Part shown: in pieces, positions 31,507 through 50,020 of the stretch
Numbering within the stretch: the first letter of the stretch is position 1
Layout of the letters: each line of letters opens with the position of its first letter
Origin: a virus
DNA: 64,000 nt
Direction: 5' to 3' (one strand)
IMG/VR virus record: IMGVR_UViG_3300047560_001714
Span: 62,001 to 126,000 of that record
The notes under the pieces: generated by a model
Databases searched by the model: none
What the model saw: the letters and a program-made list of their open reading frames with translations, nothing else
What the model was told of the DNA's origin: nothing
Made by a program: the position numbers and the translations under genes

Positions 31507-31722
31507 ATGAAAGAAGATTTAATAGAAATGACAGGTGTGGTTAATGACGTGCTGCCTGGCAATATGTTTAAAGTGCAAATCGATGATACCACGCATGAAC
31601 TAATTTGCTACTTAGGAGGAAAGCTTAAACAACACAAGATTCGAGTAATTATGGGTGACAAGGTGAAAATTGAGGTCAGTCCATATGATTTAAACCGTGG
31701 TCGAGTAATTTACCGTTTATAG
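31507..31722 (+). CDS. infA: Translation initiation factor IF-1
   Basis: 71 residues, standard IF-1 length, a single OB-fold: KEDLIEMTGVVNDVLPGNMF, then GGKLKQHKIRVIMGDKV and EVSPYDLNRGRVIYRL, all aligning with bacterial IF-1 (for example TGDKV and TPYDLSKGRI in E. coli). IF-1 sits in the ribosomal A site during initiation and assists IF-2 and IF-3. A phage-borne copy is unusual and pairs with the phage initiator tRNA. GGAG-type ribosome site lies upstream. Confidence 0.93.
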   Translation: MKEDLIEMTGVVNDVLPGNMFKVQIDDTTHELICYLGGKLKQHKIRVIMGDKVKIEVSPYDLNRGRVIYRL

Positions 31723-32837: not shown

Positions 32838-33419
32838 ATGGCTGGATTAATTCCAATGGTTGTAGAACAAGAAGCACACGGCGAACGATCTTATGACATC
32901 TATAGCAGATTATTAAAAGATCGTATCGTAATGCTTGACACAGATGTAAATGAACATTCTGCAAGTGTTATTGTTGCGCAACTTCTATTTTTAGAAAGTC
33001 AAGGCAATGATGATATTAGCTTCTTTATTAATAGTCCAGGCGGTTCAGTAACCGCTGGTATGGCTATCTATGATACAATGAACTTTATTAAACCAGACGT
33101 CTCGACGATTGTAATGGGGCAAGCGTGCAGTATGGGTAGTTTGCTCGCATCCTCTGGTGCAAAAGGCAAACGTAAAATTCTGCCATCCGCACGGCATATG
33201 ATTCATCAAGTTAGTTCCGGTACTCGTGGTACCGCAATTGATATGAAAATTGCGCTCGAAGAAACATTGAAGTTAAATAAGTACTTAACTGAGGTGTATG
33301 TGAAAAACACTGGACATTCTTACGAAAAGCTTGAACAGGATATGAGTCGTGACTATTACATGAGTGCGCAAGAAAGCGTTGATTACGGGCTTGCAGATTT
33401 AATTATTACATCACGTTAA
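32838..33419 (+). CDS. clpP: ClpP protease subunit
   Basis: 193 residues with the complete catalytic triad: S98 in GQACSMGS, H123 in HMIHQ, D172 in [24 protein letters not shown] is the oxyanion region. ClpP forms a barrel of two heptamers fed by ClpX or ClpA. No Clp ATPase is in the window, so it presumably uses host unfoldases; degrading tmRNA-tagged or host proteins is one option, processing phage proteins another. GGAG ribosome site upstream. Confidence 0.95.
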
Positions 33420-33464: not shown

Positions 33465-34781
33465 ATGCTTACACCATACCAAGCTATTATACAACTTCGA
33501 ACTACAAACAGTAGATTAGAGAAAGTAGGATATATTAAACACCAAGCAAATGTAAATAATACTGAATTTTTTGAAGGATGTCGTCTTGCATTAGACAACA
33601 TGATTACGTTTGGGGTAAAGAAAGTCCCAATTAAGAAAGACGCCGACGGACCTGGGTTATCGTGGGAGGATTTCTTAACTGTTGCAAACGATTTAAGATC
33701 ACGCAAACTAACTGGTAATGCTGCCAAAGCCGCAATTGACACACTTATGGCATCTGCGACTGATAAACAATGGAATCGATGGTATCGCCTTATTCTGATT
33801 AAAGATCTAAAATGTGGAGTTAATGTTAAAACTCTTAACAGCGCTATTATGGATTCGTCACATCCAGAATTTACTGTCCCAGTCTTTCAATGTCAATTGG
33901 CTAAAGATATTGATAAACACGCCGCAAAAGGTGTTGGTAAGAAATTACTCGAATTTAAACTGGATGGCGTTAGAGTGTTAACGGTGGTCTACCCAAATGG
34001 TGAGGTAACGCAATATTCTCGTTCTGGTAAAGAATTTAACAATTTCACTGCTATCAAAGAACGATTCGCAACGGTTGCCTATACGCTAACTAAACCATTG
34101 GTATTTGATGGCGAGGTTATGAGTACATCATTCCAAGATCTAATGAAACAGGCAAGACGTGAAGAAAATGTTGAAACTGAGAATTTGCAATTAAATCTGT
34201 TTGATGTAATCCCACTTGAGGATTTTCTAAAAGGCAAGTGTCAAATGCCGCAGGCATCCAGATCTGCATATCTTAACCTATGGTATTCTGAAAATTCGTA
34301 TGCCTTACCAAATATCAATGTTCTCCCACAGCTCGAGGTTGATTTAGATACTGAGGAAGGTATTGCTGAGTATAATGCATTCAACGATAAAGCCTTGATC
34401 GAGGGATATGAAGGTATTATGGTTAAAGACCCACTTGCACCATATGAATGCAAAGTTGGTACTAACTGGATGAAACGTAAACCATTTATTGAGGTAACAC
34501 TTGCTGTCATTGGATATGAAGAAGGTGAAGGACAATTTGAAGGTTCGCTTGGTGCATTGATTTGTCAAGGTGTTGATGATGGAATTGCAATAACTGTAAC
34601 AGTTGGTGGCGGTTTCACCCCACAAACTCGTGCTGAAATTTGGGCAGACCGTGAAAACGTTGTCGGACGCATGGTAGAAGTTCGTGCTGGTGAAATTACA
34701 CAAAATCAAAATGGAAATTACAGTTTAAGATTCCCACGTTTCAAATGTTTTAGAGGATTTGAAAAAGGTGAAAAATTGTAG
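33465..34781 (+). CDS. ATP-dependent DNA ligase
   Basis: 438 residues. Motif I has the adenylated lysine K165 in EFKLDGVRVL; also RSGKEF (Ia), FDGEVM (III), YEGIMVKDP (IV) and KRKP (V). The C-terminal OB domain includes GALIC and GRMVEVRAGEITQ. Length is between T7 (359) and T4 (487) ligases. It seals nicks in phage DNA replication or repair. AAGGA precedes the start and a promoter follows at once. Confidence 0.94.
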   Translation: MLTPYQAIIQLRTTNSRLEKVGYIKHQANVNNTEFFEGCRLALDNMITFGVKKVPIKKDADGPGLSWEDFLTVANDLRSRKLTGNAAKAAIDTLMASATDKQWNRWYRLILIKDLKCGVNVKTLNSAIMDSSHPEFTVPVFQCQLAKDIDKHAAKGVGKKLLEFKLDGVRVLTVVYPNGEVTQYSRSGKEFNNFTAIKERFATVAYTLTKPLVFDGEVMSTSFQDLMKQARREENVETENLQLNLFDVIPLEDFLKGKCQMPQASRSAYLNLWYSENSYALPNINVLPQLEVDLDTEEGIAEYNAFNDKALIEGYEGIMVKDPLAPYECKVGTNWMKRKPFIEVTLAVIGYEEGEGQFEGSLGALICQGVDDGIAITVTVGGGFTPQTRAEIWADRENVVGRMVEVRAGEITQNQNGNYSLRFPRFKCFRGFEKGEKL

Positions 34782-34809
34782 TTGACAAAAACAAAAAACC
34801 GAGTATAAT
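34782..34809 (+). promoter_or_regulatory. Promoter of the pmoC unit
   Basis: TTGACA (34782-34787), 16-nt spacer, TATAAT (34804-34809), perfect hexamers directly after the DNA ligase stop. Confidence 0.88.
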
Positions 34810-34815
34810 ATACCA

Positions 34816-34922
34816 CAACTTGGAACCAATCGTATAAATAATACGAAATACCATACTAATTTAGTATGGAATACAGAATCTCCCAACCCGTGACTTGACG
34901 GGCGTTAAGTCACGATTTTTTT
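34816..34922 (+). promoter_or_regulatory. Structured pmoC leader with internal terminator
   Basis: Between promoter and pmoC the leader forms CGTAT/ATACG and CCATACT/AGTATGG hairpins and then a full terminator CGTGACTT/AAGTCACG followed by A and seven T (34889-34922), only 26 nt before the pmoC start. CCCGT (34887-34891) can instead pair with ACGGG (34898-34902), which would break the terminator. This suggests transcription attenuation, or a short stand-alone RNA with read-through. Confidence 0.65.
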
Positions 34923-34947
34923 ACATTTTTTACCACTGGAGGTAACT

Positions 34948-35700
34948 ATGTCTGCTGTTTCAACAGATGTACAATTAGCGGTTGCGGAAGCACCGATGTT
35001 AAATAAAAGAAATATGTTTGCTGGCGCTGCCTTATATGTTTTATTTTATGGGTGGGTTCGCTGGTACGAGGGTGTTTATGGATGGTCTGCAGGTTTGGAC
35101 TCATTCGCACCTGAGTTCGAAACATACTGGATGAACTTTCTCTATATCGAAATGGTACTAGAAATCGTAACTGCTTCAGTATTATGGGGATATATCTGGA
35201 AAAGCCGTGATCGTAAAGTGATGTCAATCACACCGCGTGAAGAATTGCGTCGTCATTTCACACATTGGGTATGGTTGGTAATGTATGGTATCGCTATCTA
35301 TTATGGCGCATCTTACTTCACTGAACAAGATGGTACATGGCATCAAACAATCGTTCGTGACACTGACTTTACTCCAAGTCACGTGATTGAGTTTTACTTA
35401 AGTTATCCAATTTACATTATTACTGGTGTTGCTGCTTTCTTATACGCAAAAACACGGTTACCATCATATCAAAAAGGCTTACCTTTACAATATATGGTAT
35501 CAGTAATTGGTCCGTTCATGATTCTTCCTAATGTTGGTCTGAACGAATGGGGTCACACATTCTGGTTTATGGAAGAATTGTTCGTAGCTCCATTGCATTA
35601 CGGGTTTGTATTCTTTGGTTGGGCTGCACTTGGGGTTTTAGGTGTGGTTAACATTGAAGTACAAGCAATTTCAAGATTGCTTAAATCCGAATTAGCTTAA
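34948..35700 (+). CDS. pmoC: Particulate methane monooxygenase subunit C (PmoC)
   Basis: 250 residues, about family length, with six or so membrane helices. The metal motif DxxxHx12H is intact: D128, H132 and H145 (in EQDGTWH and TPSH), as are N199, H203 and H217 (in LNEWGH and PLHYG) of the second copper site. Recognisable stretches include WVRWYEGVYGWSAGLDSF and GPFMILPNVGLNEWGH, close to what I remember of gammaproteobacterial PmoC. PmoC is essential to the enzyme that turns methane into methanol in the intracytoplasmic membrane. No pmoA or pmoB is present, so the product would join host PmoA/PmoB. Strong GGAGGT ribosome site; own promoter, leader and terminator. Confidence 0.96.
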   Translation: MSAVSTDVQLAVAEAPMLNKRNMFAGAALYVLFYGWVRWYEGVYGWSAGLDSFAPEFETYWMNFLYIEMVLEIVTASVLWGYIWKSRDRKVMSITPREELRRHFTHWVWLVMYGIAIYYGASYFTEQDGTWHQTIVRDTDFTPSHVIEFYLSYPIYIITGVAAFLYAKTRLPSYQKGLPLQYMVSVIGPFMILPNVGLNEWGHTFWFMEELFVAPLHYGFVFFGWAALGVLGVVNIEVQAISRLLKSELA

Positions 35701-35722: not shown

Positions 35723-35746
35723 AAGGGGACTTCGGTCCCCTTTTTT
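35723..35746 (+). terminator. Terminator after pmoC
   Basis: AAGGGGAC-TTCG-GTCCCCTT hairpin ending in six T. Confidence 0.92.
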
Positions 35747-35811: not shown

Positions 35812-38800
35812 GTGGCTAAAAAGCAATTCATGACATACGATGAAGCAAAATCATACATTCAATCAGTTGAATTTAACGGTAAGAAAATCCAATCCTCACT
35901 GCAATATCGGAACTGGAGAAAATCTGGTGCAGTTACACCTATGACGTTTCCTCGTAGTCCTAATTCTGTTTATAAAAAAAATAAATTCAGCTGGGGGGAT
36001 TTCTTGGGAACTGGTAGAATAACAACTTTGGGTAGAACATATATGTCATATGATGAGGCAAAGACATTTATCCAATCAATTGAATTTAATGGTGTAAACA
36101 TCCAAACTGAAAAACAGTTTAATGAATGGCGGTGTCTTGCGGATAACGTCCCAGATAACTTACCTCGTTCTCCAAAAAGTGTATACCAACGATGCCATTT
36201 TACATGGGCTGATTTTCTTAATACTAATACAAAACGAAATGCACCATTTATGTCATATGATGAAGCAAAAACATACATTCAATCAATTGAATTTAATGGT
36301 AAAAAAATAACTACATCCACACAATTTTGTGAATGGCATAAAACCGCATCAATCCCCTATAATTTTTCAAGATCACCGGACAAACGTTACCGCCGTGATA
36401 ATTTCAGTTGGGGCGATTTTCTTGGAACTGGGAGAATATCAAACTCTCGCAGAACATTTATGACGTATGAGGAAGCGAAAGAGTACATACAATCAGTTGA
36501 ATTTAACGGTGAGTACATTACGACTGAAAAAAAATTTATTGAATGGACGAACAGCAACCATTATAATACTTCAATACCAAAGCGGCCACATCGTTATTAT
36601 ATCACTGCTACTTTTAAATGGGCCGATTTTCTGGGGACTGGTAGATTTAGCCGTAGAAACATACCATATATGAATTATCAGGATGCACAGAAATATATAC
36701 AATCCATTAACTTTAATGGGGGACCTATCACCTCCGGTGATATATTTAGAGAATGGATAAACTCCGGTGTTGAACTACCAGAAATGTTTCCTACACAACC
36801 AGGATATGCATATAGAAATCAAAATTTTAAATGGAGGGATTTTCTTGGCACCGAGGGCTTGACCTATTCAATAAAGAATTATATGCCATATGAAGACGCA
36901 AAAGCATATATTCAATCAATTGAATTTAATGGTGCGAAAATTAAATCAAAAGAAATGTATCATAAATGGTATGACTCTGGAGTTGAATTACCGGCAAAAC
37001 TACCAAGAACGCCGTGGACAGCGTATCGTCACCATGGGTTTTGTACTTGGGACTTTTTTGGAAAACCCTACAAATATTTGTGGAATACAGAACGGTTACG
37101 GAACTTTTTACAATCAATGGCTGCCACTATTGATAAATTATCATCAGTTGAACGGTACAGTATTTTGGCTGCGGCAGGATTACTAGACTTATCGACAAAC
37201 ACAAAAAACCAAGCCTTCAAACGTGTTATTTCCAATGCACTAAATGGTAAACAATATAGCGTAGATGATTTAACTGATTTTGATATTGATGATAATGATA
37301 TTGATATTGATATTGATATTGATGATACCATGCAATTTGCCGAGATAGAACCAATGATTAACGATATTTCCAAGCATAATATGTCTGTACCAGCAATTTT
37401 AGACACTATTGATACAGTTACCGAAATTCAAAAACAATTTAGTGGTGATGTCTTAGGTGATTTCTTTGTAAAAACTCGTGTGATGATGTGCTGGAACCTA
37501 GTAATCAATACGAACAAGCCAGTTGACGATGTAATTTCAGAAATCACACATCATAACACTGGTGAATATGGTACCAAAATTAAGAATGAGTTTTTACATG
37601 AATTTGATGAAACTTATAATATGTTGTTACCAAATGGATATTCATTCCACAAAAATGGGCAATTGGTGCAACCAAACTTAATGCAGAAATATATTTCTCA
37701 TGTTCTGACAACTAGAACTAGATATGGACAATGGTCAGATATGGGAGCAGGTAAAACTTTGAGTGCTATTCTTGCTTCAAGAACATTAAATTCAAAATTA
37801 ACAGTTGTAATTACGGTTAATAATACGGTACATGATGAATTTACTGGATGGGCAGGTGAAATTAAAAATGCATTCCCAGATTCACATGTATTATTAAAAG
37901 ACACAACATATCTCCAGTTTGATACTACCAATCCAAATTTTTTATTGTTAAATTATGAAAAATTTCAATTACCTGGTACACAGGATATGATTATCAACTT
38001 GGTTGAGAACCATAAAATTGATATGATTGTACTTGATGAAATTCATAGTGCGAAAAAACGTGATAATACCAAAGAAAGTATCCGACGTGCTAATATCAAT
38101 GCATTTATTACATCGGCAACCACTAAAAATCCAGCATGTCGAGTTCTCGGTATGTCAGGTACTCCAGTAGTAAATGATTTGGCAGAAGCAGTGTCGTTAC
38201 TGGAAATGGTTACTGGTGACGATTATAGTTTCTTATCGACGACTAATTCGATCAACAATGCTATAGAAATTCATAAGTATTTGGTACTTAATGGCATCAG
38301 ATTTAAACCAACATTGCACACTATGCACTTAAATGAAACAATTATTGATATTCCTGTTTCAGATGTAGAAATAATTAAAAATATTGCGGCATTACCAAAA
38401 GGAGCAATGCTTCAAATGGAACAACAGTTATTGCAACCAAAAATCCAAACGATTATTGATAATTGCCAACCACAAACTATCATTTATACACAATATGTTG
38501 ATGGTATTGTGGATGAAATATCAGAGGTTCTTAGTAAAAACAGTATTTCACATGGATTCTTCACTGGTAATGATAAGGCTGGATTGGAACAATTCAAGAA
38601 CAAACAAATTGATGTTTTGATCGCATCTAGCCCGATTAGCACAGGGGTCGATGGGTTGCAATATATTTGTAATAAAATGATAATTGTTTCTTTACCATGG
38701 ACACATTCATTGTACCAGCAATTGGTGTGTCGTTTATATAGACAAGGTAGTAATTTTACTGATATTGAAATTGTAATACCAAAAGTTATAATTGAGAATA

Positions 38801-38979
38801 ACGGTGATGAATGGTCGTGGGATAATACCAGATTGGAACGTATCAAATATAAACGTACTCTCGGTGATTGTGCGGTAGATGGGGTTATTCCAAACAGTAA
38901 AATCCTATCTGAAACACAAGAGTTCGACAAATGCAAAGAAGCGTTGAATATGATTATCAAAAAAATTGAAAACAAATAG
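35812..38979 (+). CDS. SF2 helicase-like protein with six N-terminal repeats, 1055 aa
   Basis: GTG start with GGAG 8 nt upstream. Residues 4 to about 425 hold six repeats of about 70 aa beginning at 4, 78, 147, 217, 287 and 358. Each has (M)xYDEAKxYIQSxEFNG, a W, a PRSP-like step and W..FLGT. This layout resembles the phage-integrase repeat unit. A low-complexity D/I tract (about 492-508) precedes the helicase: Walker A GAGKT at 645-649, DEIH at 742-745, LGMSGTP motif III, and a C-terminal half with IASSPISTGVDGLQ and QQLVCRLYRQGS. It probably translocates on nucleic acid in the SNF2/DEAD-like manner, with the repeats as a binding array. Confidence 0.85.
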   Translation: MAKKQFMTYDEAKSYIQSVEFNGKKIQSSLQYRNWRKSGAVTPMTFPRSPNSVYKKNKFSWGDFLGTGRITTLGRTYMSYDEAKTFIQSIEFNGVNIQTEKQFNEWRCLADNVPDNLPRSPKSVYQRCHFTWADFLNTNTKRNAPFMSYDEAKTYIQSIEFNGKKITTSTQFCEWHKTASIPYNFSRSPDKRYRRDNFSWGDFLGTGRISNSRRTFMTYEEAKEYIQSVEFNGEYITTEKKFIEWTNSNHYNTSIPKRPHRYYITATFKWADFLGTGRFSRRNIPYMNYQDAQKYIQSINFNGGPITSGDIFREWINSGVELPEMFPTQPGYAYRNQNFKWRDFLGTEGLTYSIKNYMPYEDAKAYIQSIEFNGAKIKSKEMYHKWYDSGVELPAKLPRTPWTAYRHHGFCTWDFFGKPYKYLWNTERLRNFLQSMAATIDKLSSVERYSILAAAGLLDLSTNTKNQAFKRVISNALNGKQYSVDDLTDFDIDDNDIDIDIDIDDTMQFAEIEPMINDISKHNMSVPAILDTIDTVTEIQKQFSGDVLGDFFVKTRVMMCWNLVINTNKPVDDVISEITHHNTGEYGTKIKNEFLHEFDETYNMLLPNGYSFHKNGQLVQPNLMQKYISHVLTTRTRYGQWSDMGAGKTLSAILASRTLNSKLTVVITVNNTVHDEFTGWAGEIKNAFPDSHVLLKDTTYLQFDTTNPNFLLLNYEKFQLPGTQDMIINLVENHKIDMIVLDEIHSAKKRDNTKESIRRANINAFITSATTKNPACRVLGMSGTPVVNDLAEAVSLLEMVTGDDYSFLSTTNSINNAIEIHKYLVLNGIRFKPTLHTMHLNETIIDIPVSDVEIIKNIAALPKGAMLQMEQQLLQPKIQTIIDNCQPQTIIYTQYVDGIVDEISEVLSKNSISHGFFTGNDKAGLEQFKNKQIDVLIASSPISTGVDGLQYICNKMIIVSLPWTHSLYQQLVCRLYRQGSNFTDIEIVIPKVIIENNGDEWSWDNTRLERIKYKRTLGDCAVDGVIPNSKILSETQEFDKCKEALNMIIKKIENK

Positions 38980-39042: not shown

Positions 39043-40062
39043 ATGACACACAAAATTGGTTTCGCATGCAAATGGATTGACAACGCATCACAAGTCGATG
39101 GCATCAAATCATCCGACGATTGCAAAAAATATAACACTGGTACAACCACTGTTGCGTGGCTTGACCGCCAAACCCCACATACTGCTGAGAAAAAATTATG
39201 GGACTTACTCAAACAAAATATCGAGGCAACTCGCAAGTTAGTTCACAAAGTTTCTACACTTGCTGAACCATTGCGTATGGTGCGTCTAAGTAGTGACATA
39301 CTCCCAGTATATACACATACTAAATATGCTGAATTTTATCGTCGTCCAGATGTTGTTGCCTATGCCGCACGTGAGTTTGCTCGTATTGGCGAGATTGCAC
39401 GACAAACTAATACCCGTCTATCATTCCATCCTGGCCAGTTTTGTGTATTAGCGTCAGACCGCCCAGATGTTGTCGATAACAGTATTGCAGAATTTGAATA
39501 CCACGCTGATATGGTACGTTGGCTTGGTTTTGGTACCACTTTCCAAGATATGAAAATTAACGTGCATATTGCTGGTAAACTTGGCCCTACTGGTATGCTT
39601 GCTGCATATGACCGATTAAGCGATGTTGCTAAAAATTGTATTACTATTGAAAATGAGGAGATTTCCTTTGGACTTGATGACTGCCTTACCCTTGCTAGTA
39701 GAATTCCTGTGGTTTTGGATATACACCACCACTTTATTAAGACAGGAGAATATATCCAACCCAATGACCCGCGTGTACAACTTGTTATTGATAGTTGGCG
39801 TGGTTGTCGCCCCACTATGCATTATTCTGTTAGTCGGGAAGATGTACTACCAACCCATTGCAAATCAACTTTGCCAGAACTTCAACTATTGCTTGAGGCT
39901 GGACTAAACAAACAGAAATTGCGTGCGCATTCCAATTTTATGTGGAATTCTGCTGTTAATCAATGGGCGTTAACATTCTTAGATAGTTTTGACATTATGG
40001 TCGAAGCCAAAGCAAAAAACCTTGCATCGTTTGCGCTATATGAGTTATCTAAAAATAGATAA
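39043..40062 (+). CDS. uvsE: UV damage endonuclease (UvdE/UVDE)
   Basis: 339 residues, a TIM-barrel like endonuclease IV: IGFACKWID, VRLSSDILPVYTH, LSFHPGQFCVLAS, IENEEISFGLDDCL, VVLDIHHHFI, HYSVSR, LRAHSNFMW. The histidine, glutamate and aspartate residues in these strands form the metal site. UvdE nicks DNA 5' to UV photoproducts and some abasic sites. A lit freshwater setting would favour it. Confidence 0.92.
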   Translation: MTHKIGFACKWIDNASQVDGIKSSDDCKKYNTGTTTVAWLDRQTPHTAEKKLWDLLKQNIEATRKLVHKVSTLAEPLRMVRLSSDILPVYTHTKYAEFYRRPDVVAYAAREFARIGEIARQTNTRLSFHPGQFCVLASDRPDVVDNSIAEFEYHADMVRWLGFGTTFQDMKINVHIAGKLGPTGMLAAYDRLSDVAKNCITIENEEISFGLDDCLTLASRIPVVLDIHHHFIKTGEYIQPNDPRVQLVIDSWRGCRPTMHYSVSREDVLPTHCKSTLPELQLLLEAGLNKQKLRAHSNFMWNSAVNQWALTFLDSFDIMVEAKAKNLASFALYELSKNR

Positions 40063-40919: not shown

Positions 40920-41171
40920 ATGAAAGAAACCAGTATTGCAGCGATAATCACGGGTGCCCTTATTGTTATTTTAGTAGGTGCTGTCGGATTTGCGATATAC
41001 AATGAGTCACAATTTGAAACAAAGCTGCAAAATCAGACACCATCTGGCTGCACATTTTTAGGACAAGCACGCGATTTACGTAAAGTAGCTTTTTATGCCT
41101 GCGGTTCTGATAAAGAAATTATTATGGCATTTTCTGGCAATCAACCAAACTATAAAGGAGACAATAAATGA
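40920..41171 (+). CDS. Single-span membrane protein, 83 aa
   Basis: ATG 40920 follows AGAGG. One membrane helix (residues about 7-28), then a domain with two cysteines (SGCTFLG and YACGSDK) likely exposed to the periplasm as a disulphide pair. Overlaps the next gene by 4 nt. No family recognised. Confidence 0.65.
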   Translation: MKETSIAAIITGALIVILVGAVGFAIYNESQFETKLQNQTPSGCTFLGQARDLRKVAFYACGSDKEIIMAFSGNQPNYKGDNK

Positions 41172-41542
41172 GTGTTTTTACAGATCAAGAAAAATTTATG
41201 ACAGCATGTGACCAATCGGTTGATAAGTTCAACGACCCACAATATAAGCTGTATATCGACTTAATCAAAGAAGAAGTCCAAGAATTGAACGATGCCATCA
41301 AAGATGGGGATCTTACCGAACAATTAGATGCATTGATTGATATCTTAGTTGTAACAACTGGTGCTATTCATTCGGCTGGGTTTGATGCAAACGGCGCTTG
41401 GGACGAAGTTATGAAAACTAACTTTGCTAAAATCGACCCAACGACTGGTAAAGTTAACAAACGAGCCGATGGGAAAGTACTAAAACCAGAAGGCTGGGTT
41501 GCCCCCAACCTAATTCCATTTTTAAGAAAACGCGGAGAATAA
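41168..41542 (+). CDS. MazG/HisE-like NTP pyrophosphohydrolase
   Basis: 124 residues. LIKEEVQELNDAI (ExxEE-like) and LDALIDILVVTTG (DxxxD-like) form the metal site of the all-alpha pyrophosphohydrolase fold. The conserved tail DGKVLKPEGWVAPNL is typical of the phosphoribosyl-ATP pyrophosphohydrolase-like phage group. MazG proteins hydrolyse nucleoside triphosphates, and phage versions may affect nucleotide pools or ppGpp. Confidence 0.82.
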   Translation: MSVFTDQEKFMTACDQSVDKFNDPQYKLYIDLIKEEVQELNDAIKDGDLTEQLDALIDILVVTTGAIHSAGFDANGAWDEVMKTNFAKIDPTTGKVNKRADGKVLKPEGWVAPNLIPFLRKRGE

Positions 41543-41543: not shown

Positions 41544-42209
41544 ATGACAACATTGACAAAAGAATTGGTATATACGCCGATGGTGCGTGTTTATAAAAAC
41601 ATGCTATTATCGATTTTAACGACCTTTGTCACTATTTTTTTCGTTGGAACACACTTTCCATCGTTTACATTTTTGTATAATGGTGCGATGTTATGGGTGA
41701 CAATATTATTACCACTCCCAGCAATATTTGCGGTATCATCTATTTTACAGAATTGCAAAACAGATGCGCTTAACTATGCTGCATTTCTAGGATTTGCTGT
41801 TTTAATGGGTCTGTCGTTGGCGCCTGTGGTAATAGTGTCCCCATTAGAATTAGTTGGAACCGCATTTGGTTCAGCGGCGTTACTGTTTACCACAATGGCT
41901 GCGTATGGTGCATATACCAAACGAGATTTATCTAGTTGGGGCAGTTTCTTAATGGTTGGATTAATTGCGTTAATTATAGCTAGTTTTATTAACATTTTTG
42001 TGTTAAACTCTATGCTAAATTTAATTATTAGTGGTATTACTATTATTGTGTTCTTAGGACTAACTGCGTATGATGTACAATCGATTCAAGAAATGATTCG
42101 TTATGAACAAAATACTGGTTTAGAATTAATGGGCGCATTATTGTTATACATGAATTTCATCAACTTATTCCTAAGTATCTTACGAATACTTAGTGAAACG
42201 CACGATTAG
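41544..42209 (+). CDS. Bax inhibitor-1 family membrane protein
   Basis: 221 residues with seven likely membrane helices and the family features MGLSLAPVV and LTAYDVQSIQEM, followed by LYMNFINLFLSILRIL at the end. Bacterial relatives (YccA, YbhL) are inner-membrane proteins; YccA blocks FtsH-mediated proteolysis. A phage copy could protect membrane proteins, which is of interest beside a phage-encoded PmoC. This last link is speculation. Confidence 0.85.
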   Translation: MTTLTKELVYTPMVRVYKNMLLSILTTFVTIFFVGTHFPSFTFLYNGAMLWVTILLPLPAIFAVSSILQNCKTDALNYAAFLGFAVLMGLSLAPVVIVSPLELVGTAFGSAALLFTTMAAYGAYTKRDLSSWGSFLMVGLIALIIASFINIFVLNSMLNLIISGITIIVFLGLTAYDVQSIQEMIRYEQNTGLELMGALLLYMNFINLFLSILRILSETHD

Positions 42210-42263: not shown

Positions 42264-43076
42264 ATGAGAAAAAGTTATTGGTCATGTTCAGAGTTTGCTG
42301 ATTGGTTGCGTGGAACTAAAAAGTTACCGTATGGTACAAGCGATGAATGGGATGATTGGGATTCTTTAGCAAAAGCAAATAATCAAATTAGATTTTGGCT
42401 GGCTGAAACCGCATTGGACAAACTACAGGATATTATAATGTGGCCGATTGACACAATTTATAATATCAAATATTATTGTGTAAACCGATGGGTAACCAAA
42501 ACACACCAACTTACAGCTGCGCCGCAGGACATTAAACCAGGTGAATGGTGTGATGTAGGTAATAGGTTTTTGCCTTGTTTATTCAACGAATTAGTCAATT
42601 TTGTTGAGGTTGAGCAAGCGTGGCATCATATTGCGTGGGATGAGGATGCTAGTAAAAAATACGAGGCACCATTCAATGCTAGTGGATATTTTAATACTCG
42701 AACTTGGAGATGTCCGGAAGCTGGGTTAGAATATTTAGACTGGGCAAGTGAATTAAGATACGATGCCAATATAATGGCATCTGATCATCCTAAGTTTGGC
42801 CATCTTACTGACCAAGCATTAGCGGCACGTGAGATTAGAGAACTTTACTACTGGTGGAAAGTGCAACGCCCACAGCGGGTTGACCCATATGATGCCAGTG
42901 GGTTTAATGAGTTAATTGACCAGGATGCAAAATTTTTTACATCTTTGAAAAACATGGATAAAGACAAATCTAAAAAAGCTAATGAAATGATACGAGATTT
43001 GGAAGAACTTTACGAAAATGAGGATGAAGAAATGATGATTAGGCTAATAAAAATTAGGCAAGGATTGTGGACATGA
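42264..43076 (+). CDS. Hypothetical protein, 270 aa
   Basis: MRKSYWSCSEFADWLRGTKK start; GGAG upstream. Tryptophan-rich and acidic, with a helical end (DLEELYENEDEEMMIRLI). Similar proteins recur in large phages without assigned function, as far as I recall. The stop overlaps the first radical SAM gene of the cluster (ATGA), so it may be an accessory or substrate protein. Confidence 0.65.
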   Translation: MRKSYWSCSEFADWLRGTKKLPYGTSDEWDDWDSLAKANNQIRFWLAETALDKLQDIIMWPIDTIYNIKYYCVNRWVTKTHQLTAAPQDIKPGEWCDVGNRFLPCLFNELVNFVEVEQAWHHIAWDEDASKKYEAPFNASGYFNTRTWRCPEAGLEYLDWASELRYDANIMASDHPKFGHLTDQALAAREIRELYYWWKVQRPQRVDPYDASGFNELIDQDAKFFTSLKNMDKDKSKKANEMIRDLEELYENEDEEMMIRLIKIRQGLWT

Positions 43077-44446
43077 CTAATGAAGAAAGAATTAGAATTT
43101 TAGACGAAAAGCGAGAAAAAATCGATGAAATAAGTCCTAGTTTTTGCACAGCAAAATGGTTGCAAACAACTTTATATCTACAAAACGGGTATAACCATAG
43201 TTGCCACCATCCTAGTCCTCATAAGATTCCACTTGCTGAAATTAAAATAGATCCTGCGTCATTGCACAATAGCTCTTTTAAAAAGTCGCAACGTGTTATG
43301 ATGAAGCAAGGTCAACGACCGCCTGAATGTGAATATTGTTGGAAAATTGAAGACCTTAATAAAAATTATTTTTCTGACAGGCATTATAAAACATCTGATA
43401 CGTGGGCATGGCCCCGATTTGATGAAATTGCCGCATCTGATCCTACCATTAACGTATTTCCGAGTTACCTTGAAGTTAGTTTTAGTAATGCATGTAACTT
43501 TGCATGTGCGTACTGTTCTCCAGAAATAAGCAGTAAATGGATGGAAGACATAGTTGAGTACGGCCAATATCCAACTGAACATAGCAGTCATAGTCTAAGT
43601 TATTTAGAGAGTGTCGGTAAGATGCCGTATAAAAACAATGAAGAGAATCCATATGTAGATGCATTTTGGCAATGGTTCCCAGAAGCGTTACCTAACTTAA
43701 AAGTTCTTCGAATCACTGGTGGCGAGCCCACTATGGCAAAATCAATGTGGCGATTGTTAGATTACCTAATTGAGAATCCAAATTTAGATCTAAATATTGC
43801 GATTAACACAAATGCATGTGTTGACAATAAACTGATTGATAAACTAATCGAAAAGATCAACAAATTAACAGAGATTGGGATATCTGTTGATATATACACA
43901 AGTCTAGAAAGTATTGGTGAGCAAGCCGAATATGTGAGAGATGGGTTATCATACGATCAATGGTGTAGGAATGTACATCGTTTTCTCTCCGAAACTTCGT
44001 CAACAGTTTCATTAATGACAACTATTAATATATTGAGTCTTCCGACTTTTACGAAGTTCATCTCATTAATTATGGAATTTCGTAAAATTTACAATAAAGA
44101 TTTTGCATACAATCGAATCCCATTAAGTATAAATTACTTACGGTGGCCACCGCATTTGCAAGCAACGCTGTTGGATCAAGATACTAGGACAACTTATGCA
44201 ACTGAAATTGAAGAGTTTTGCGAACAATGGTTGAAATACTATAGTCCAGAACTTTATGCAAGAATTTACCTTGAAGAGTTTGATCAAATAAAAAGATTCT
44301 GTGATTATTTAAGAACATCCGTCACTGAATTAAATTACAGAAAAGACTTTGTGAACTATATAAATACATACGATTTTCGACGAGGAAAAAATTTCGCAGA
44401 ATGTTTTCCAGAATATAAAAACTTATTAGAGAAGTGGAATGCCTAA
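43073..44446 (+). CDS. Radical SAM protein 1 of the cluster, 457 aa
   Basis: Unusual layout: an N-terminal cysteine module (FCTAKW, SCHHPSPH, CEYCWK) precedes the radical SAM motif C141-NFA-C145-AY-C148. Then LRITGGEPTM is the SAM-binding GGE. The N-terminal cysteines look like a SPASM/twitch cluster moved to the front. Residue patterns show it is a paralogue of the 44439 protein. ATG 43073 overlaps the stop upstream. Substrate unknown; the 270-aa protein just before it is a candidate. Confidence 0.88.
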   Translation: MTNEERIRILDEKREKIDEISPSFCTAKWLQTTLYLQNGYNHSCHHPSPHKIPLAEIKIDPASLHNSSFKKSQRVMMKQGQRPPECEYCWKIEDLNKNYFSDRHYKTSDTWAWPRFDEIAASDPTINVFPSYLEVSFSNACNFACAYCSPEISSKWMEDIVEYGQYPTEHSSHSLSYLESVGKMPYKNNEENPYVDAFWQWFPEALPNLKVLRITGGEPTMAKSMWRLLDYLIENPNLDLNIAINTNACVDNKLIDKLIEKINKLTEIGISVDIYTSLESIGEQAEYVRDGLSYDQWCRNVHRFLSETSSTVSLMTTINILSLPTFTKFISLIMEFRKIYNKDFAYNRIPLSINYLRWPPHLQATLLDQDTRTTYATEIEEFCEQWLKYYSPELYARIYLEEFDQIKRFCDYLRTSVTELNYRKDFVNYINTYDFRRGKNFAECFPEYKNLLEKWNA

Positions 44447-45890
44447 AAAACCAGAAGAAAGTTTAAAACAATACCGAATTCGTGTATTAGATAGCAAGAG
44501 CAATAGCTTTTGTGGTGCAAAGTGGTTTAATGCAACCACATGGTTAGGTAGCGGAACAACTGCTAGTTGTCATCACCCTCCTGCACACACTATTCCAATA
44601 TCCGAAGTAAACGAAAATTTTACAGCGATACATAACACCTCTCATAAAAAAGCAATGCGTCGAATGATGCAAGAAGGTGAAAGACCTCGTGAATGCGAAT
44701 ATTGCTGGAAGATGGAAGACATGGGTAAAGATGCTGTGAGTGATCGTGTTTTCAAAAGCATAATTTACACAGACGAAGAACTTGATATCGCATATAATAC
44801 ACATCAAGATGAAAACGTGCAACTTAAAACATTTGAAATCGCATTCGACCGAGTATGTAATTTAGCATGTTCGTATTGTAATGCATCTTTTTCAACTACA
44901 TGGGCTAAGGACATTAAAAACAATGGTCCTTATCAGAACTTAGTCAGTGACGGTGCAGGCGCGTATCATCATGCTGGAGATTGGGCTCAACCGTTTAAGG
45001 ATGATCAAGAAAATCCATACATACAAGCATTTTGGAAGTGGTGGGACAATGGTCTTTCGGACAGTTTGCAAGAACTAAGAATTACTGGCGGCGAACCTCT
45101 AATGAGTGGAAATACGTGGAAGTTAATGGATTGGTTCGAATCACAGAACTCAGATATTCGATTTGCGATTAATACCAACCTAATTGCAAAAAAAGATATT
45201 ATTGACGCACTAATAGATAAATCGCATAATATTAAGAATTTTGATTTATATACTAGCTGCGAATCAGTTGGTGCTCATGCTGAGTATATCCGAGATGGAT
45301 TAGATTACAATCTATGGTTAGCAAACTTGACTAGAGTTTTAACTGAAGCTCGTTATCATGAGGTAAATGTAATGATGACCATTAATAGTCTTTGCTTGTT
45401 TAGCATTACTGACTTTTTAGATGAAATTTATAAATTAAAAGAATTAACACAAAGTAAAAGTCCTGCTGTTAGTTTAAACTTACTTAGATTTCCTAGTTTT
45501 CAAAGTCCTCTCGCATTACCAACACACATAAAAGATGTATTGCATAAAAATCTTTCAGAATGGTACGAACAGAAAAAATCATTGCCGTATTGGGATACCT
45601 TTGAAAAAACAAATATTGAACGGTTAATCGATTACTTAATCACGGTTGATGCTCCACACCGCCGCACAAGTAATTCAATTACATTATGGAGAGATTTTAA
45701 AACATTCTATAAACAATACGATGTCCGTAGAAACAAAGATATAAATGTTTTCCCTCCGATATTAACCGAGTGGATTGAAAGTATTCCGGATACTGATTCT
45801 GCTATTCAAGAATTAGCTGAGAAAGAAGGTTGGATATTAACACCTGATAACAAAAATATAGATAACCCAACGGCAACATATGACAAATAA
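44439..45890 (+). CDS. Radical SAM protein 2 of the cluster, 483 aa
   Basis: Same layout as protein 1: FCGAKWFNATT, ASCHHPPAHT and CEYCWKMEDMGKD, then C140-NLA-C144-SY-C147 and LRITGGEPLM. The two are clearly related over most of their length. 8-nt overlap upstream, 11-nt overlap downstream. A longer C-terminal tail ends NKNIDNPTATYDK. Confidence 0.88.
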   Translation: MPKKPEESLKQYRIRVLDSKSNSFCGAKWFNATTWLGSGTTASCHHPPAHTIPISEVNENFTAIHNTSHKKAMRRMMQEGERPRECEYCWKMEDMGKDAVSDRVFKSIIYTDEELDIAYNTHQDENVQLKTFEIAFDRVCNLACSYCNASFSTTWAKDIKNNGPYQNLVSDGAGAYHHAGDWAQPFKDDQENPYIQAFWKWWDNGLSDSLQELRITGGEPLMSGNTWKLMDWFESQNSDIRFAINTNLIAKKDIIDALIDKSHNIKNFDLYTSCESVGAHAEYIRDGLDYNLWLANLTRVLTEARYHEVNVMMTINSLCLFSITDFLDEIYKLKELTQSKSPAVSLNLLRFPSFQSPLALPTHIKDVLHKNLSEWYEQKKSLPYWDTFEKTNIERLIDYLITVDAPHRRTSNSITLWRDFKTFYKQYDVRRNKDINVFPPILTEWIESIPDTDSAIQELAEKEGWILTPDNKNIDNPTATYDK

Positions 45891-47202
45891 AATCGGAAAA
45901 TATTTTTGTGTTGCTCCATGGACTCATACATATCTAAGTCCACAAAGTGAACGCCGTATATGTTGCGCAAGTCGGGAACCAGCAGCATGGCAACGGCAAT
46001 ACATAGATTCGAAAGGTACAGACTGCGATACATACTCTCCAAAAACTCTTGAAGAACATTGGAATAGCGAACACATGAAAAGTGTTCGCAAACGAATTCT
46101 AGCAGGGGAAAAAATCCCAGAATGTCAAGTATGCAATGATCAGTTACTAAACCTTCATACTTATAGACAATATTTTACAGATTCTTTATTTCCTCATAAA
46201 ATAGAAGATATTATAAATTCTACCGACGAAACCGGCTATACGACAATGAATCCGATTAGTTTTGATTATAGAATTTATAACTTATGTAATTTTAAATGTC
46301 GTATGTGTGGAGAACAGCTATCTAGTTCTTGGGAATCAGAAAAACGCCAGATGAATAACTGGAGTTCAATTCACGACAAGTGGATGATTTTAGAAAATAA
46401 ACAGTTAATCCAGGAGTTCCAGCAAGGAGTTGCTGAACAAGAATTATGGAAAAGTGTTAAAAATCATACTATAGAAGAAATTTATTGGGTAGGCGGTGAA
46501 CCATTGATGTACAACATTCACTGGGATGTTATGAACTACTTAGTCAAATCAGGGCATAGCAAGAACGTGGTTGTTAGATATAATACTAATTTAAGTCGTA
46601 CTAGTTATAAAGATAACAATTTATATGATTTACTAACTCATTTTAAGAGGGTGAATATATGTGCAAGCATAGATGCAACAAAAGAGATTGGAGAATGGAT
46701 ACGAACCGGTCTTAACTGGAACGAATGGCTCGACAACTTTAAATCCGGTATTTTTTTAAATGAAAAATATGGAATGGACGCAATGGTGTTAGATGTAACA
46801 TTAACATTACCTGGTTTACTAGGAATCAAGGATATGATCGATTTAGCGGTGGAATTAAATGTTAAAAGTTACGTGAAGATTACATTTGATTTTGATTCTA
46901 GTGCAATTATGAGTCCAATGTGTTTACCTAAAGAAATTTTAAATGAAATTTGTAATGATTTAATCGAATACGAAACCCAACATGGAAATTTATTAACTAG
47001 AATCTATAGTCAAACGTTCCGAGATATGCTGAATCGACCGACTTTTGAGGATAAATATCCTGATTATAGACAAGGACTAATTAAAGGTAAGGAACGATAC
47101 AAAAATATCGCAGAATTTAGGAAAGACGGCCAAATAGCTGTGACAATAGAAGATATCTTCAAAAAAAATAACAAAATTTTTAATTGGTGGAATTCTATAT
47201 GA
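45880..47202 (+). CDS. Radical SAM protein 3 of the cluster, 440 aa
   Basis: N-terminal FCVAPWTHTYLSP, RRICCAS and CQVCNDQLL form the front cysteine module, and C136-NFK-C140-RM-C143 is the radical SAM motif. YWVGGEPLM is the SAM site. The CxxPWxHxxxxP start is shared with proteins 4, 5 and 6, making this a second subgroup. Overlaps neighbours on both sides. Confidence 0.88.
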   Translation: MTNKIGKYFCVAPWTHTYLSPQSERRICCASREPAAWQRQYIDSKGTDCDTYSPKTLEEHWNSEHMKSVRKRILAGEKIPECQVCNDQLLNLHTYRQYFTDSLFPHKIEDIINSTDETGYTTMNPISFDYRIYNLCNFKCRMCGEQLSSSWESEKRQMNNWSSIHDKWMILENKQLIQEFQQGVAEQELWKSVKNHTIEEIYWVGGEPLMYNIHWDVMNYLVKSGHSKNVVVRYNTNLSRTSYKDNNLYDLLTHFKRVNICASIDATKEIGEWIRTGLNWNEWLDNFKSGIFLNEKYGMDAMVLDVTLTLPGLLGIKDMIDLAVELNVKSYVKITFDFDSSAIMSPMCLPKEILNEICNDLIEYETQHGNLLTRIYSQTFRDMLNRPTFEDKYPDYRQGLIKGKERYKNIAEFRKDGQIAVTIEDIFKKNNKIFNWWNSI

Positions 47203-48356
47203 GTACCTTATGTCCTCTACCGTGGATACATTTAGCAAGTCACCCAGAAGGAAAGGTTACACTATGTTGTATTAGTGAACATGCTTGTAATATGAGTGCT
47301 GCTCGAACAAACGGCGAGACCTTAAATTTAAACAAACACTCTGTATTTGAAATTGTAAATAACGATTACTTTAAAAAAACAAGACTAGAAATGTTAGCCG
47401 GAGTCAAACCTACCGCGTGTTCTCGATGTTATCGAGAGGAAGAGTTAACCGGAAAAAGTAAGCGATTATCCGAAAAATTAAAATTTAGTGTCGATTATTC
47501 AACTAATACAGACGGATCTATTATTCCTAATTTAAAATTTATCGAACTTCGACTAGGTAACCTATGTAACGTTAAATGCAGAACATGCAATCCTGCATCT
47601 AGCACACAGTGGATACAAGAATATAATAAATTACAACAGGAATTAAATTTTGTAGCAAACTATGACACTAAGATTAATACAGATTGGACACAAAGTGACA
47701 AGTTTTGGGATGATTTATTAGAAAATAGTAAGGACATAGAATTAATTTATATTAACGGTGGGGAGCCCACGTTAGTTGAGAAACATTGGACTTATCTTGA
47801 AAGATTGATCGACGCAAATTTAAATGAACAAGTTACTCTTTGGTATAACATTAATATGACAAATGTACCAGACAATCTTGTTAATATCTGGAGACAATTT
47901 AAGAAAGTTATTGTTCACGGGTCAATCGACGATATTAACGAACGCAACTCATATATTAGAAAAGGTACTAATTGGAATTCTGTAGAATCTAACTTAATTA
48001 AGTTAAAATCTTTAGATTGGATCGAGTTGCATGTCACTCAAACCGTCAGTTGGTTAAACATTTACTATGTTCCCGAATTTAATGATTATTTTGAATCACA
48101 CCAGATAAATACGCATATTAATTTAGTCTATGATCCGATTTTTTTAAGCCCATTTGTAATTCCAAATTATGCTAAAGAAGAATTATTTAAAAAATTTAGT
48201 GGAACAAAATTTAACTGGCTTATACCGTTAATTAAGACAGGAGAAGACTTAGAAATATTCAAGCAAGGCGTTGAATATAACAGATGGTTAGACCGATCAA
48301 GAAACGAAAATTTTCAAACACATTTTTCCGAATGGACAACTATTTTAAGGATATAA
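47199..48356 (+). CDS. Radical SAM protein 4 of the cluster, 385 aa
   Basis: ATG 47199 gives MSTLCPLPWIHLASHPEG; front cysteines continue TLCCIS and CSRCYREEEL. Radical SAM motif C123-NVK-C127-RT-C130; YINGGEPTL for SAM. WNSxx and LEMLAGVKP between the modules are typical of SPASM-type phage proteins. It overlaps protein 3 by 4 nt and is followed by an SGNH hydrolase. Confidence 0.88.
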   Translation: MSTLCPLPWIHLASHPEGKVTLCCISEHACNMSAARTNGETLNLNKHSVFEIVNNDYFKKTRLEMLAGVKPTACSRCYREEELTGKSKRLSEKLKFSVDYSTNTDGSIIPNLKFIELRLGNLCNVKCRTCNPASSTQWIQEYNKLQQELNFVANYDTKINTDWTQSDKFWDDLLENSKDIELIYINGGEPTLVEKHWTYLERLIDANLNEQVTLWYNINMTNVPDNLVNIWRQFKKVIVHGSIDDINERNSYIRKGTNWNSVESNLIKLKSLDWIELHVTQTVSWLNIYYVPEFNDYFESHQINTHINLVYDPIFLSPFVIPNYAKEELFKKFSGTKFNWLIPLIKTGEDLEIFKQGVEYNRWLDRSRNENFQTHFSEWTTILRI

Positions 48357-48357
48357 C

Positions 48358-49215
48358 ATGACACAATGCCCCAATAACGACACCCTCTCTGAATTAAAAC
48401 TAAGGAGTCCATTACTAGCGAAAACTCCATCAGACATACTGTATTACAGTAACATGCAAAATCGAGCCGAATTAGCTCAAGGTTTCCCACCACCGGGATT
48501 TCACACGTTTATAAACACACAAGAAAAAAACAGAAGTAATAGTAACTGGGAAGAGCCATTCTCGTATTATATCAATGAGCTCGGCTTTAGAGGTAATTAT
48601 CCCCGAACTGATATAAAAAATATTATAGGATTTTTTGGATGTAGTTGTACATTTGGTGAAGGATTGCCAGAAACTAGGCTCTTTTCATCTATTGTCGGAT
48701 CACACAGAAATTATCCGATACTTAATTTAGGAATGCCAGGTACTGGATGTCATCGAATTGCCATGACTTTTTCGGCTGCTGCAAACATATGGAAAATAGA
48801 TACTGCTATAGTAACATTACCGAATTACAGCCGATTTAATTATGTATCTAAATACAATTTAATGTATTCGATTTTACCAGCACATCCTACTATGCCCGAT
48901 GAAGCTGAAACTGTTAGGCTTGACCTTGTTAAACATTTTAGTGAAGAATATTTTATATCTGCGGCTAAAGATGCGATTACATGGATCGTTACAACTGCAC
49001 GTCAGAAAAAGATTAAACTCATCTTAGGTTCTTGGGATCCGCATACATTAAAAATAATCGAAACTGTAACTGAATACAACCCACCCTTTTTTAATATGTA
49101 CCCTATAGGTTCTACACCTGCTAGAGATACGATTCATCCAGGAACTGCGGCTAACCGGATGTATGCAGAAACGCTAATAAATTACATGGATAACACCAAC
49201 TATGTGCAGACCTGA
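48358..49215 (+). CDS. SGNH/GDSL-like hydrolase A, 285 aa
   Basis: Block I is FFGCSCTFGEGL (GxS), block II LNLGMPGTGCHR, block III near TLPNYSR, and block V ARDTIHPG with the D..H pair. SGNH enzymes remove acyl groups from sugars or peptides; several in phages act on surface glycans. The start ATG is 1 nt after the radical SAM stop. A second, related copy lies at 50013. Confidence 0.72.
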   Translation: MTQCPNNDTLSELKLRSPLLAKTPSDILYYSNMQNRAELAQGFPPPGFHTFINTQEKNRSNSNWEEPFSYYINELGFRGNYPRTDIKNIIGFFGCSCTFGEGLPETRLFSSIVGSHRNYPILNLGMPGTGCHRIAMTFSAAANIWKIDTAIVTLPNYSRFNYVSKYNLMYSILPAHPTMPDEAETVRLDLVKHFSEEYFISAAKDAITWIVTTARQKKIKLILGSWDPHTLKIIETVTEYNPPFFNMYPIGSTPARDTIHPGTAANRMYAETLINYMDNTNYVQT

Positions 49216-50020
49216 TAAAATAAGTATCGCTATAATTACATTTCATAATGACTTTGAGTTGCTAAAAAAATTATTAAATTCAATATATGCTTACTGGGAC
49301 CCGGTAGAAATAGATTCTATTAAAATTGTATTAAATGACGGTCCTGAATATTACTCTCAATTTAATGAGTTAATCGACGAGGTCACGGTTCCTGACTTTA
49401 AAATAGATAAAGTATTCCATTATGAATTAGCACCAAAAGTATTTTTGTTAAATTGGACTAGCCAACAATTATTTAAATGTGTAATATCTAAAAAAATTAC
49501 AACAGAATGGTATTTAATAAACGATTGTAAAGATACTTATAATGCTCCTACCGGAATTACCGATTGCTTTACTCAAGACGGAAAAGCTATAATGCATCTC
49601 GATCACAATCGGTATACCGATCAAAATGAACCAATGACTCATTGGGGGTTTGGACCGTTTAGTTCGGCATTTCGAAACTCGTGTCTTCTTTTTAATGTTG
49701 ACCCCGAAGATTGTAAAAATTATCACTTACCATTTTTAACTCCGTTTTTAGTTAAAACATCTATGATGCAAGATATGGTACAAGATGTTAAAAGTATGAT
49801 GCAAGGAATGTTTCCGTTTTTATTTGCGATAAATCTTGACGGTGCGTTCTTTGTAACTGAATTTTTACTATACAACGCATATTGTTATTCAAAAAACAAA
49901 TTAACTGATTATGCCGACTGGGAGATAAATTATCGAAAATTTTTTAGTTCGGTGAGCCAATCTATTGAACAACGGAGTACAACTGGGGTTAGGATTATGG
50001 ATTTTTCTAGAAATGAGTAA
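49202..50020 (+). CDS. Glycosyltransferase-like protein, 272 aa
   Basis: ISIAIITFHNDFELLKKLL start is like GT2 enzymes (beta strand then helix), with SIKIVLNDGPEYY following. The usual DxD is not plain; EWYLINDCKD is the nearest. FVTEFLLYNAYCYSK near the end may face a membrane. Overlaps hydrolase A by 14 nt and hydrolase B by 8 nt, so sugar transfer and acyl removal are probably linked. Confidence 0.5.
   Translation: MCRPDKISIAIITFHNDFELLKKLLNSIYAYWDPVEIDSIKIVLNDGPEYYSQFNELIDEVTVPDFKIDKVFHYELAPKVFLLNWTSQQLFKCVISKKITTEWYLINDCKDTYNAPTGITDCFTQDGKAIMHLDHNRYTDQNEPMTHWGFGPFSSAFRNSCLLFNVDPEDCKNYHLPFLTPFLVKTSMMQDMVQDVKSMMQGMFPFLFAINLDGAFFVTEFLLYNAYCYSKNKLTDYADWEINYRKFFSSVSQSIEQRSTTGVRIMDFSRNE

What the first reader, a model, noticed from the sequence alone, without database searches (positions are those of the whole stretch)
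34948..35700. Complete pmoC with intact copper ligands
All residues of the DxxxHx12H site and of the Asn-His-His site are kept, the length is normal and expression signals are strong. It is an auxiliary metabolic gene for methane oxidation. pmoC in large freshwater phages has been reported, so the value here is the context: promoter, leader and a nearby Bax-inhibitor-1 and ClpP.
Basis: partly seen in the sequence, partly recalled or inferred. Interest (0 to 1): 0.75.

Follow-up and report, generated by a model that had tools for sequence, protein, structure and literature searches.

The report
Phage pmoC behind a two-promoter leader
A large lake phage carries a complete copy of the gene for one copper-binding part of the bacterial methane-oxidising enzyme, placed behind both a bacterial-type and a phage-late-type promoter, and in related phages the same gene is interrupted by self-splicing introns that may explain 'fragmented' copies reported earlier.

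Summary
Window 34948-35700 (+) encodes a 250-aa PmoC (Pfam AmoC 402 bits; co-linear with solved pMMO PmoC) with both copper sites (D128/H132/H145; N199/H203/H217). It groups with gammaproteobacterial methanotroph PmoC, not ammonia or hydrocarbon monooxygenase, is under purifying selection, and every residue unseen in 77 host PmoCs lies in the two tails. No pmoA or pmoB was found. pmoC-phages are published (Chen 2020), so the gene itself is a known kind.

New here: (1) The upstream region is a dual-promoter leader: a perfect sigma-70 box resembling the host pmoC promoter in spacer and position, a T4-type late box TATAAATA (27/42 distinct phage pmoC leaders, 0/60 hosts), and a hairpin plus U-tract 33 nt before the ATG. 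That hairpin's stem covaries in six phage leaders around a GGGY loop. (2) The ClpP/Bax-inhibitor neighbourhood is partly syntenic in related phages. (3) Seven distinct relatives carry group I introns inside pmoC (11 introns, 7 sites, up to four in one gene, six sites around the Asn-His-His ligands); splicing in silico restores full PmoC. This probably explains published 'fragmented' phage pmoC.

Expression timing, splicing and enzymatic function are inferred.

The parts
34782..34809 (+). Early-type (sigma-70) promoter TTGACA-16-TATAAT
   Evidence: 12/12 consensus match; host pmoC genes have TTGACA-16-TAGACT (or TAAACT) at a similar distance from the ATG
34830..34846 (+). Leader hairpin 1, which contains the late box
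   Evidence: RNA fold of 34815-34947, z -4.75
34833..34840 (+). T4-type late promoter box TATAAATA
   Evidence: same box at -130 to -60 in 27/42 distinct phage pmoC leaders and 0/60 host leaders; ATAAATA is the top 7-mer upstream of ORFs in this genome
34851..34869 (+). Leader hairpin 2 (CCATACTAATTTAGTATGG)
34889..34914 (+). Leader hairpin 3, terminator-like: 11-bp stem, GGGC loop
   Evidence: stem covaries in six phage pmoC leaders, 95.5% of cells paired, 0/500 shuffles reach the score
34916..34922 (+). U-tract after hairpin 3
34938..34942 (+). Ribosome-binding site GGAGG
34948..35700 (+). pmoC, 250 aa, intron-free, both copper sites intact
35329..35382 (+). Codons of D128, H132, H145 (DxxxHx12H site)
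35542..35598 (+). Codons of N199, H203, H217 (Asn-His-His site); region around which six of seven intron sites lie in relatives
35725..35746 (+). Terminator after pmoC (GGGGAC-TTCG-GTCCCC then T6)
   Evidence: Sequence
32838..33419 (+). ClpP protease, syntenic neighbour
   Evidence: Pfam 240.9 bits; synteny in L005, L006, L009, L010, L014, L019, L020, L037
41544..42209 (+). Bax1-I family membrane protein, partly syntenic neighbour
   Evidence: Pfam 162 bits; also in L005 and L006

Best explanation
This is a host-derived, functional pmoC kept by a large phage of a gammaproteobacterial methanotroph. The PmoC made during infection would be built into pMMO with host PmoA and PmoB, replenishing the membrane copper subunit and keeping methane oxidation, and hence energy supply, running until lysis. 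Shown: intact gene, methanotroph descent, purifying selection, conserved core, no pmoA or pmoB found. The locus has a host-like layout (sigma-70 promoter with 16-nt spacer, a leader with several hairpins, the last one close before the ribosome-binding site) to which a phage late promoter has been added. Inferred: the sigma-70 promoter gives early transcription limited by the hairpin and U-tract, late transcription starts at TATAAATA, and the retained hairpin protects the 5' end or tunes output. In related phages the same gene is a repeated target of group I introns, some with a neighbouring endonuclease-like ORF, as known for cyanophage psbA.
For: Complete ORF with all ligands. Tree inside gammaproteobacterial PmoC, with other phage copies. 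dN 0.059 against dS 1.24 to the nearest host gene found. All 11 residues unseen in hosts are at positions 2-17 and 243-248. PmoA/PmoB absent by tblastn with a working positive control. Late box in 27/42 distinct phage leaders, 0/60 hosts, 0.4 in shuffles; ATAAATA enriched upstream of ORFs in this genome. Covarying hairpin. Host-like promoter spacing and hairpin position. Published metatranscriptomes show high late expression of other phage pmoC genes (PMC7674155).
Against: No RNA data for this phage. The late box and promoter are consensus matches. A late sigma factor was not identified among the ORFs scanned. A terminator-like hairpin downstream of both promoters could also silence the gene. 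Assembly of phage PmoC with host PmoAB has not been shown for any phage to my knowledge.
Confidence: 0.7

Rival explanations
1. The leader is mainly an insulator. Hairpin 3 with its U-tract is an ordinary terminator that stops upstream and early transcription from entering pmoC, so pmoC is read only from the late promoter.
For: Strong hairpin plus U7; a terminator overlapping a late box occurs before another gene of this genome at record position 143861.
Against: The hairpin lies downstream of the late box, so late transcripts must pass it as well. L012, L037 and L021 keep the hairpin without a clean U-tract.
Confidence: 0.35
2. The leader is a regulated attenuator or riboswitch-like element (for example responding to copper or cell state) that decides whether transcripts enter pmoC.
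For: Near-constant GGGY loop with a covarying stem; leader much longer than other late-type leaders of this genome (115 against median 29 nt); hosts also have a hairpin near the same place.
Against: No Rfam match; no clear alternative antiterminator fold seen; only six distinct sequences, partly related by descent.
Confidence: 0.2
3. Phage PmoC does not boost methane oxidation; it is a decoy or poison subunit that slows or remodels host pMMO, or it is a recently acquired passenger without function.
For: Only pmoC, never pmoA or pmoB, is carried; tails differ from host PmoC.
Against: All ligands kept and silent change dominates; no core residue unseen in hosts; conserved promoters.
Confidence: 0.12
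4. The gene is an assembly chimera of a host pmoC joined into a phage contig.
For: PMC7674155 warns that near-identical phage and host pmoC genes confuse assembly.
Against: Only about 82% DNA identity to the nearest host gene found; phage-type leader absent from hosts; same neighbourhood in independent contigs.
Confidence: 0.02

Closest known systems
pmoC-phages of freshwater lakes (Chen et al. 2020, PMC7674155)
   Same: Large phage, stand-alone pmoC with copper ligands, no pmoAB, gammaproteobacterial methanotroph type; Hsp20 also present in this record.
   Different: That paper does not mention promoters, terminators or introns (for the first two). The dual-promoter leader, covarying hairpin and intron reading of fragmented copies are added here.
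Host stand-alone or operon pmoC of Methylococcales
   Same: About 90-92% protein identity; TTGACA box with 16-nt spacer and a hairpin shortly before the ribosome-binding site.
   Different: Hosts have -10 TAGACT or TAAACT and no TATAAATA at the same place; phage has perfect TATAAT plus the late box, and no pmoAB.
T4-type late promoters
   Same: TATAAATA box upstream of the gene.
   Different: The pmoC leader is much longer than other late-type leaders in this genome; a late sigma factor was not identified here.
Cyanophage psbA with group I intron and F-CphI endonuclease (PMC6083498)
   Same: Phage-kept metabolic gene with group I introns at conserved coding positions and, in some, a neighbouring free-standing endonuclease-like ORF (relatives L009, L041, L042).
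   Different: Introns here are in pmoC, at seven sites, up to four in one gene; the window copy itself has none, and cleavage or splicing is untested.

Membership tests
PmoC (pMMO subunit C, PF04896) | Family profile match over full length | tested here: met
   402.6 bits, residues 9-247; end-to-end alignment with solved PmoC
PmoC (pMMO subunit C, PF04896) | DxxxHx12H and Asn-His-His copper ligands | tested here: met
PmoC (pMMO subunit C, PF04896) | Groups with methane rather than ammonia or hydrocarbon monooxygenases | tested here: met
PmoC (pMMO subunit C, PF04896) | Assembles with PmoA and PmoB and supports methane oxidation | not testable with these tools
   Only sequence conservation of the core
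pmoC-phage | Large phage genome with pmoC but no pmoA or pmoB | tested here: met
   187,935-bp record; no PmoA/PmoB; the record may be incomplete
T4-type late promoter | TATAAATA box upstream of the gene, enriched upstream of ORFs genome-wide | tested here: met
T4-type late promoter | Late sigma factor (gp55) encoded and transcription start mapped | tested here: inconclusive
   Not found among the ORFs scanned; not all ORFs scanned; no RNA data
Group I intron (relatives only) | Rfam RF00028 match inside the gene | tested here: met
   L009, L019, L039, L041 x2, L042 x4; L018 and L021 below threshold
Group I intron (relatives only) | 5' exon ends in U, intron ends in G, exons join in frame | tested here: met
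   U 11/11, G 10/11, full PmoC restored in 7/7 distinct alleles
Group I intron (relatives only) | RNA is actually spliced | not testable with these tools
   No RNA data
Group I intron (window copy) | Rfam RF00028 match inside the gene | tested here: not met
   None in the window or in the rest of the record

The most novel reading that the evidence does not exclude
Phage pmoC is a self-contained expression and mobility unit: a host-type pmoC promoter and leader upgraded with a phage late promoter and a lineage-specific regulatory hairpin, whose coding sequence around the Asn-His-His copper ligands is a hot spot for self-splicing introns with neighbouring endonucleases. The published 'fragmented' phage pmoC genes would then be intact spliced genes, and pmoC would be the methane counterpart of cyanophage psbA.
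Probability: 0.5. Interest if true: 0.75.

Novelty: new variant of a known kind. Interest (0 to 1): 0.57.

Why it matters
Phages that keep or boost methane oxidation in lakes could alter the flux of a greenhouse gas, but whether their pmoC is functional and when it is made are open questions. The leader found here gives a testable timing (early host-type plus late phage-type transcription) that fits published late expression. The introns in related copies mean that 'broken' pmoC genes in surveys may have been miscounted: once spliced they would encode full-length PmoC. If confirmed it adds another metabolic gene, after psbA, that is both phage-kept and intron-targeted.

Tried and rejected
(1) Leader hairpin as a general terminator of this phage: rejected as the simple answer. 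The motif ACGGGCGT occurs once in the window, at pmoC; AACGGGCGTT occurs once in the record, inside another ORF. (2) TTAACGGGCGTTAA as a pmoC-specific motif across viruses: 107 stretches match, roughly what chance would give by my estimate, so the exact string is not diagnostic. (3) A known RNA family for the leader: none at gathering score. (4) Alpha-type leader hairpin (AGAGTGG...CCACTTGA, L043-L081): strongly conserved and not found elsewhere in the fetched loci, but its outer pairs do not vary, so covariation is not convincing; it is absent upstream of two Methylocystis plasmid pmoC genes. (5) Intron in this phage: none. (6) pmoC in annotated phage records: no tblastn or DNA match in 50,697 INPHARED records. 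(7) Frequency of TATAAATA over the whole record: not enriched overall (14 hits); only the upstream-specific count is informative. (8) Phage-specific fixed residues: only positions 7, 114 and 187, all mild. (9) Structure prediction was not run, because solved pMMO structures align over the full length.

Full report
What is there. Window 34948-35700 (+) is a complete ORF of 250 aa. It matches Pfam AmoC at 402.6 bits over residues 9-247 and aligns without gaps over its full length to the PmoC chains of 6CXH and 7S4L. The two metal sites are complete: D128-GTW-H132-x12-H145 and N199-EWG-H203-x13-H217. The window is positions 62001-126000 of a 187,935-bp virus record with one AmoC hit. PmoA and PmoB were not found: family HMMs gave nothing (no positive control rang there), and tblastn with PmoA/PmoB of a methanotroph found nothing in the record while finding both in a control locus. 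In the same comparison the 81 viral loci have PmoC but no PmoA or PmoB within their flanks, whereas 75 and 68 of the 80 host loci do.

Origin and constraint. In a tree with ammonia, hydrocarbon and XmoC outgroups the window protein lies inside gammaproteobacterial methanotroph PmoC (support 100/99), beside ten other phage sequences (95/78). Outgroups are excluded at 99/98. Its DNA is 82% identical to the nearest host gene found (L082, which is followed by ORFs alike to the pmoA and pmoB of Methylotuvimicrobium buryatense); dN is 0.059 and dS 1.24, so change is almost all silent (dS is close to saturation). Against 77 distinct host PmoCs of the same length, 11 positions carry a residue seen in no host, and all 11 are at 2-17 or 243-248; the core 18-242 holds none. 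This is what a subunit still held to the host enzyme would look like. It does not prove assembly.

The leader. Upstream are, in order: a perfect TTGACA-16-TATAAT at 34782-34809; a box TATAAATA at 34833-34840 in a small hairpin; a second hairpin at 34851-34869; a third, 11-bp hairpin at 34889-34914 followed by U7; then GGAGG and ATG. The stretch 34815-34947 folds better than all 200 shuffles (z -4.75). TATAAATA is the classical T4-type late box. In this genome ATAAATA is the most enriched 7-mer upstream of ORFs (19 seen, 2.1 expected). Among 42 distinct phage pmoC leaders 27 have TATAAATA between -130 and -60, against 0 of 60 host leaders and 0.4 on average in shuffles (Fisher 3e-14). In this genome the other late-type boxes lie a median of 29 nt before their gene, while pmoC has 115 nt (three other long-distance sites, including one before dnaK, were left out of that hand-entered list as doubtful). 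The same contrast (pmoC far, others near) holds in relatives (Mann-Whitney p 5e-6; the three longest pmoC distances were left out there, which is conservative).

The covarying hairpin. The third hairpin recurs 31-35 nt before the ATG in six distinct phage leaders (window, L005, L009, L012, L014, L021). Aligned, 95.5% of cells pair, 6 of 11 pairs show changes on both sides, and 0 of 500 shuffles reach the score; slid controls fall to 21-43%. The closing A-U and C-G pairs and the loop GGGY stay constant. Most of these phages share the ClpP/ligase/MazG neighbourhood, so part of the sharing is descent, but the stems have diverged while keeping pairing. L012, L037 and L021 keep the hairpin but lack a clean U-tract, so termination alone may not explain it.

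Comparison with host leaders. Host leaders have a comparable layout without clear sequence similarity: TTGACA-16-TAGACT (or TAAACT) ending 103-132 nt before the ATG in the seven leaders printed, and a hairpin 24-26 nt before the ATG in 20 hosts. In the window the sigma-70 box ends 138 nt before the ATG. A simple reading is that the phage took or rebuilt the host-type pmoC control region, sharpened the -10 box and added its own late promoter; convergence is not excluded. In this record only two identified genes, dnaK and pmoC, have a consensus early box closely followed by a late-type box (a third site, at record 77428-77544, precedes a short ORF).

Neighbourhood. ClpP (32838-33419), DNA ligase (33465-34781), UvdE (39043-40062), MazG (41168-41542) and Bax1-I (41544-42209) were identified by Pfam or PHROGs. 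Phosphoesterase, ClpP, pmoC, UvdE and Bax1-I, followed by MazG and the next ORF, occur in the same order in L005 and L006, with subsets in L009, L010, L014, L019, L020, L037 and L012.

Introns in relatives. While collecting relatives nine pmoC matches were too long or broken. Rfam finds group I introns (RF00028) inside pmoC in L009, L019, L039 and L041 (two) at gathering score, and four in series in L042 at 94-105 bits; L018 and L021 carry alike inserts below threshold. Removing the inserts restores a 250-259-aa PmoC with both copper sites in all seven distinct alleles; the 5' exon ends in U in 11 of 11 and the intron in G in 10 of 11 (L042 intron 1 ends in A and may not splice). There are seven sites, at G45, G202, F205, F207, A214, F220 and G224 in window numbering, so six lie around the Asn-His-His ligands. 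L042 has predicted exons of 13, 23 and 30 nt between its introns. L018 and L019 share an intron at 95% identity with exons at 86%, and L018 differs from intron-free L002 at 19 of 750 exon positions; this indicates lateral spread. ORFs of 217-294 aa on the opposite strand directly follow intron-bearing pmoC in L009, L018, L041 and L042. L042's has a GIY-YIG domain over cut-off; L009's has a sub-threshold SegE match; L009's and L041's match DUF7487; L018's has no clear match. A census after merging near-identical genes gave introns in gammaproteobacterial-type and intermediate clades but in none of 34 alphaproteobacterial-type copies (it merged L018 with L002, so its intron count is low by one). 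Chen 2020 described four 'fragmented' phage pmoC genes, and in one of them a weakly transcribed non-coding region between the pieces (PMC7674155). No held paper contains both 'pmoC' or 'methane monooxygenase' and 'group I intron'. Cyanophage psbA with F-CphI is the precedent (PMC6083498). The window copy is intron-free.

Mechanism. Best supported: PmoC is made in the infected cell, early at a level limited by the leader and late at high level, and enters pMMO with host PmoA and PmoB, so that energy from methane continues while host synthesis stops. Shown: gene integrity, descent, constraint, presence and conservation of boxes and hairpin. Inferred: use of the promoters, termination, assembly and benefit. 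The rivals for the leader (plain insulator; regulated attenuator) cannot be separated without RNA data.

Verdict. The control region and the introns in its relatives are what add value.

Noticed in passing
L042:1540-2612 (IMGVR_UViG_3300047476_001516): Four group I introns in one phage pmoC, with predicted exons of 13, 23 and 30 nt between them.
   Followed up: yes
L009:5659-5916, L018/L019/L020/L022:5615-5863, L021:5643-5893, L039:5130-5382, L041:5596-5844 and 5898-6149: Group I introns in pmoC of other phages, several followed by an opposite-strand endonuclease-like ORF.
   Followed up: yes
L043-L081, about 75-95 nt upstream of pmoC: Alphaproteobacterial-type pmoC-phages share a conserved structured leader (AAGAGTGG...CCACTTGAT) a few nt after TATAAATA, found nowhere else in the fetched loci.
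   Followed up: partly
L018, L042, L062, L063 (listed): A second structured stretch after TATAAATA (GCTGAT.CTCC...GTAGGTAG...) near other ORFs of pmoC-phage contigs.
   Followed up: no
window 306-749: Permuted tmRNA (Rfam RF04321 and beta_tmRNA; ARAGORN tag ANDSNFEFYTLDNIDLDVMAA) in the phage.
   Followed up: no
window 31507-31722: Phage-encoded translation initiation factor IF-1 (Pfam eIF-1a, 72 bits).
   Followed up: partly
window 35812-38979: The gene after pmoC is a 1055-aa helicase whose first 400 residues are about six repeats of a 60-aa unit (YDEAKxYIQSxEFNG...) before the helicase core.
   Followed up: no
window 13900-15540: Tryptophan-halogenase family gene (Pfam 284 bits) in a phage.
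   Followed up: no
window 42264-56104: Run of radical SAM and unidentified genes after the Bax1-I gene.
   Followed up: no
window 4034-4177: Rfam Polynucleobacter-1 RNA (53.6 bits) in the phage.
   Followed up: no
record G000 45915-47980 (L164): dnaK, like pmoC, has a consensus early promoter and late-type boxes in one leader.
   Followed up: partly
record G000 143861: A late-type box lies inside the loop of a terminator hairpin before the next gene, so late transcripts would lack its 5' arm.
   Followed up: no
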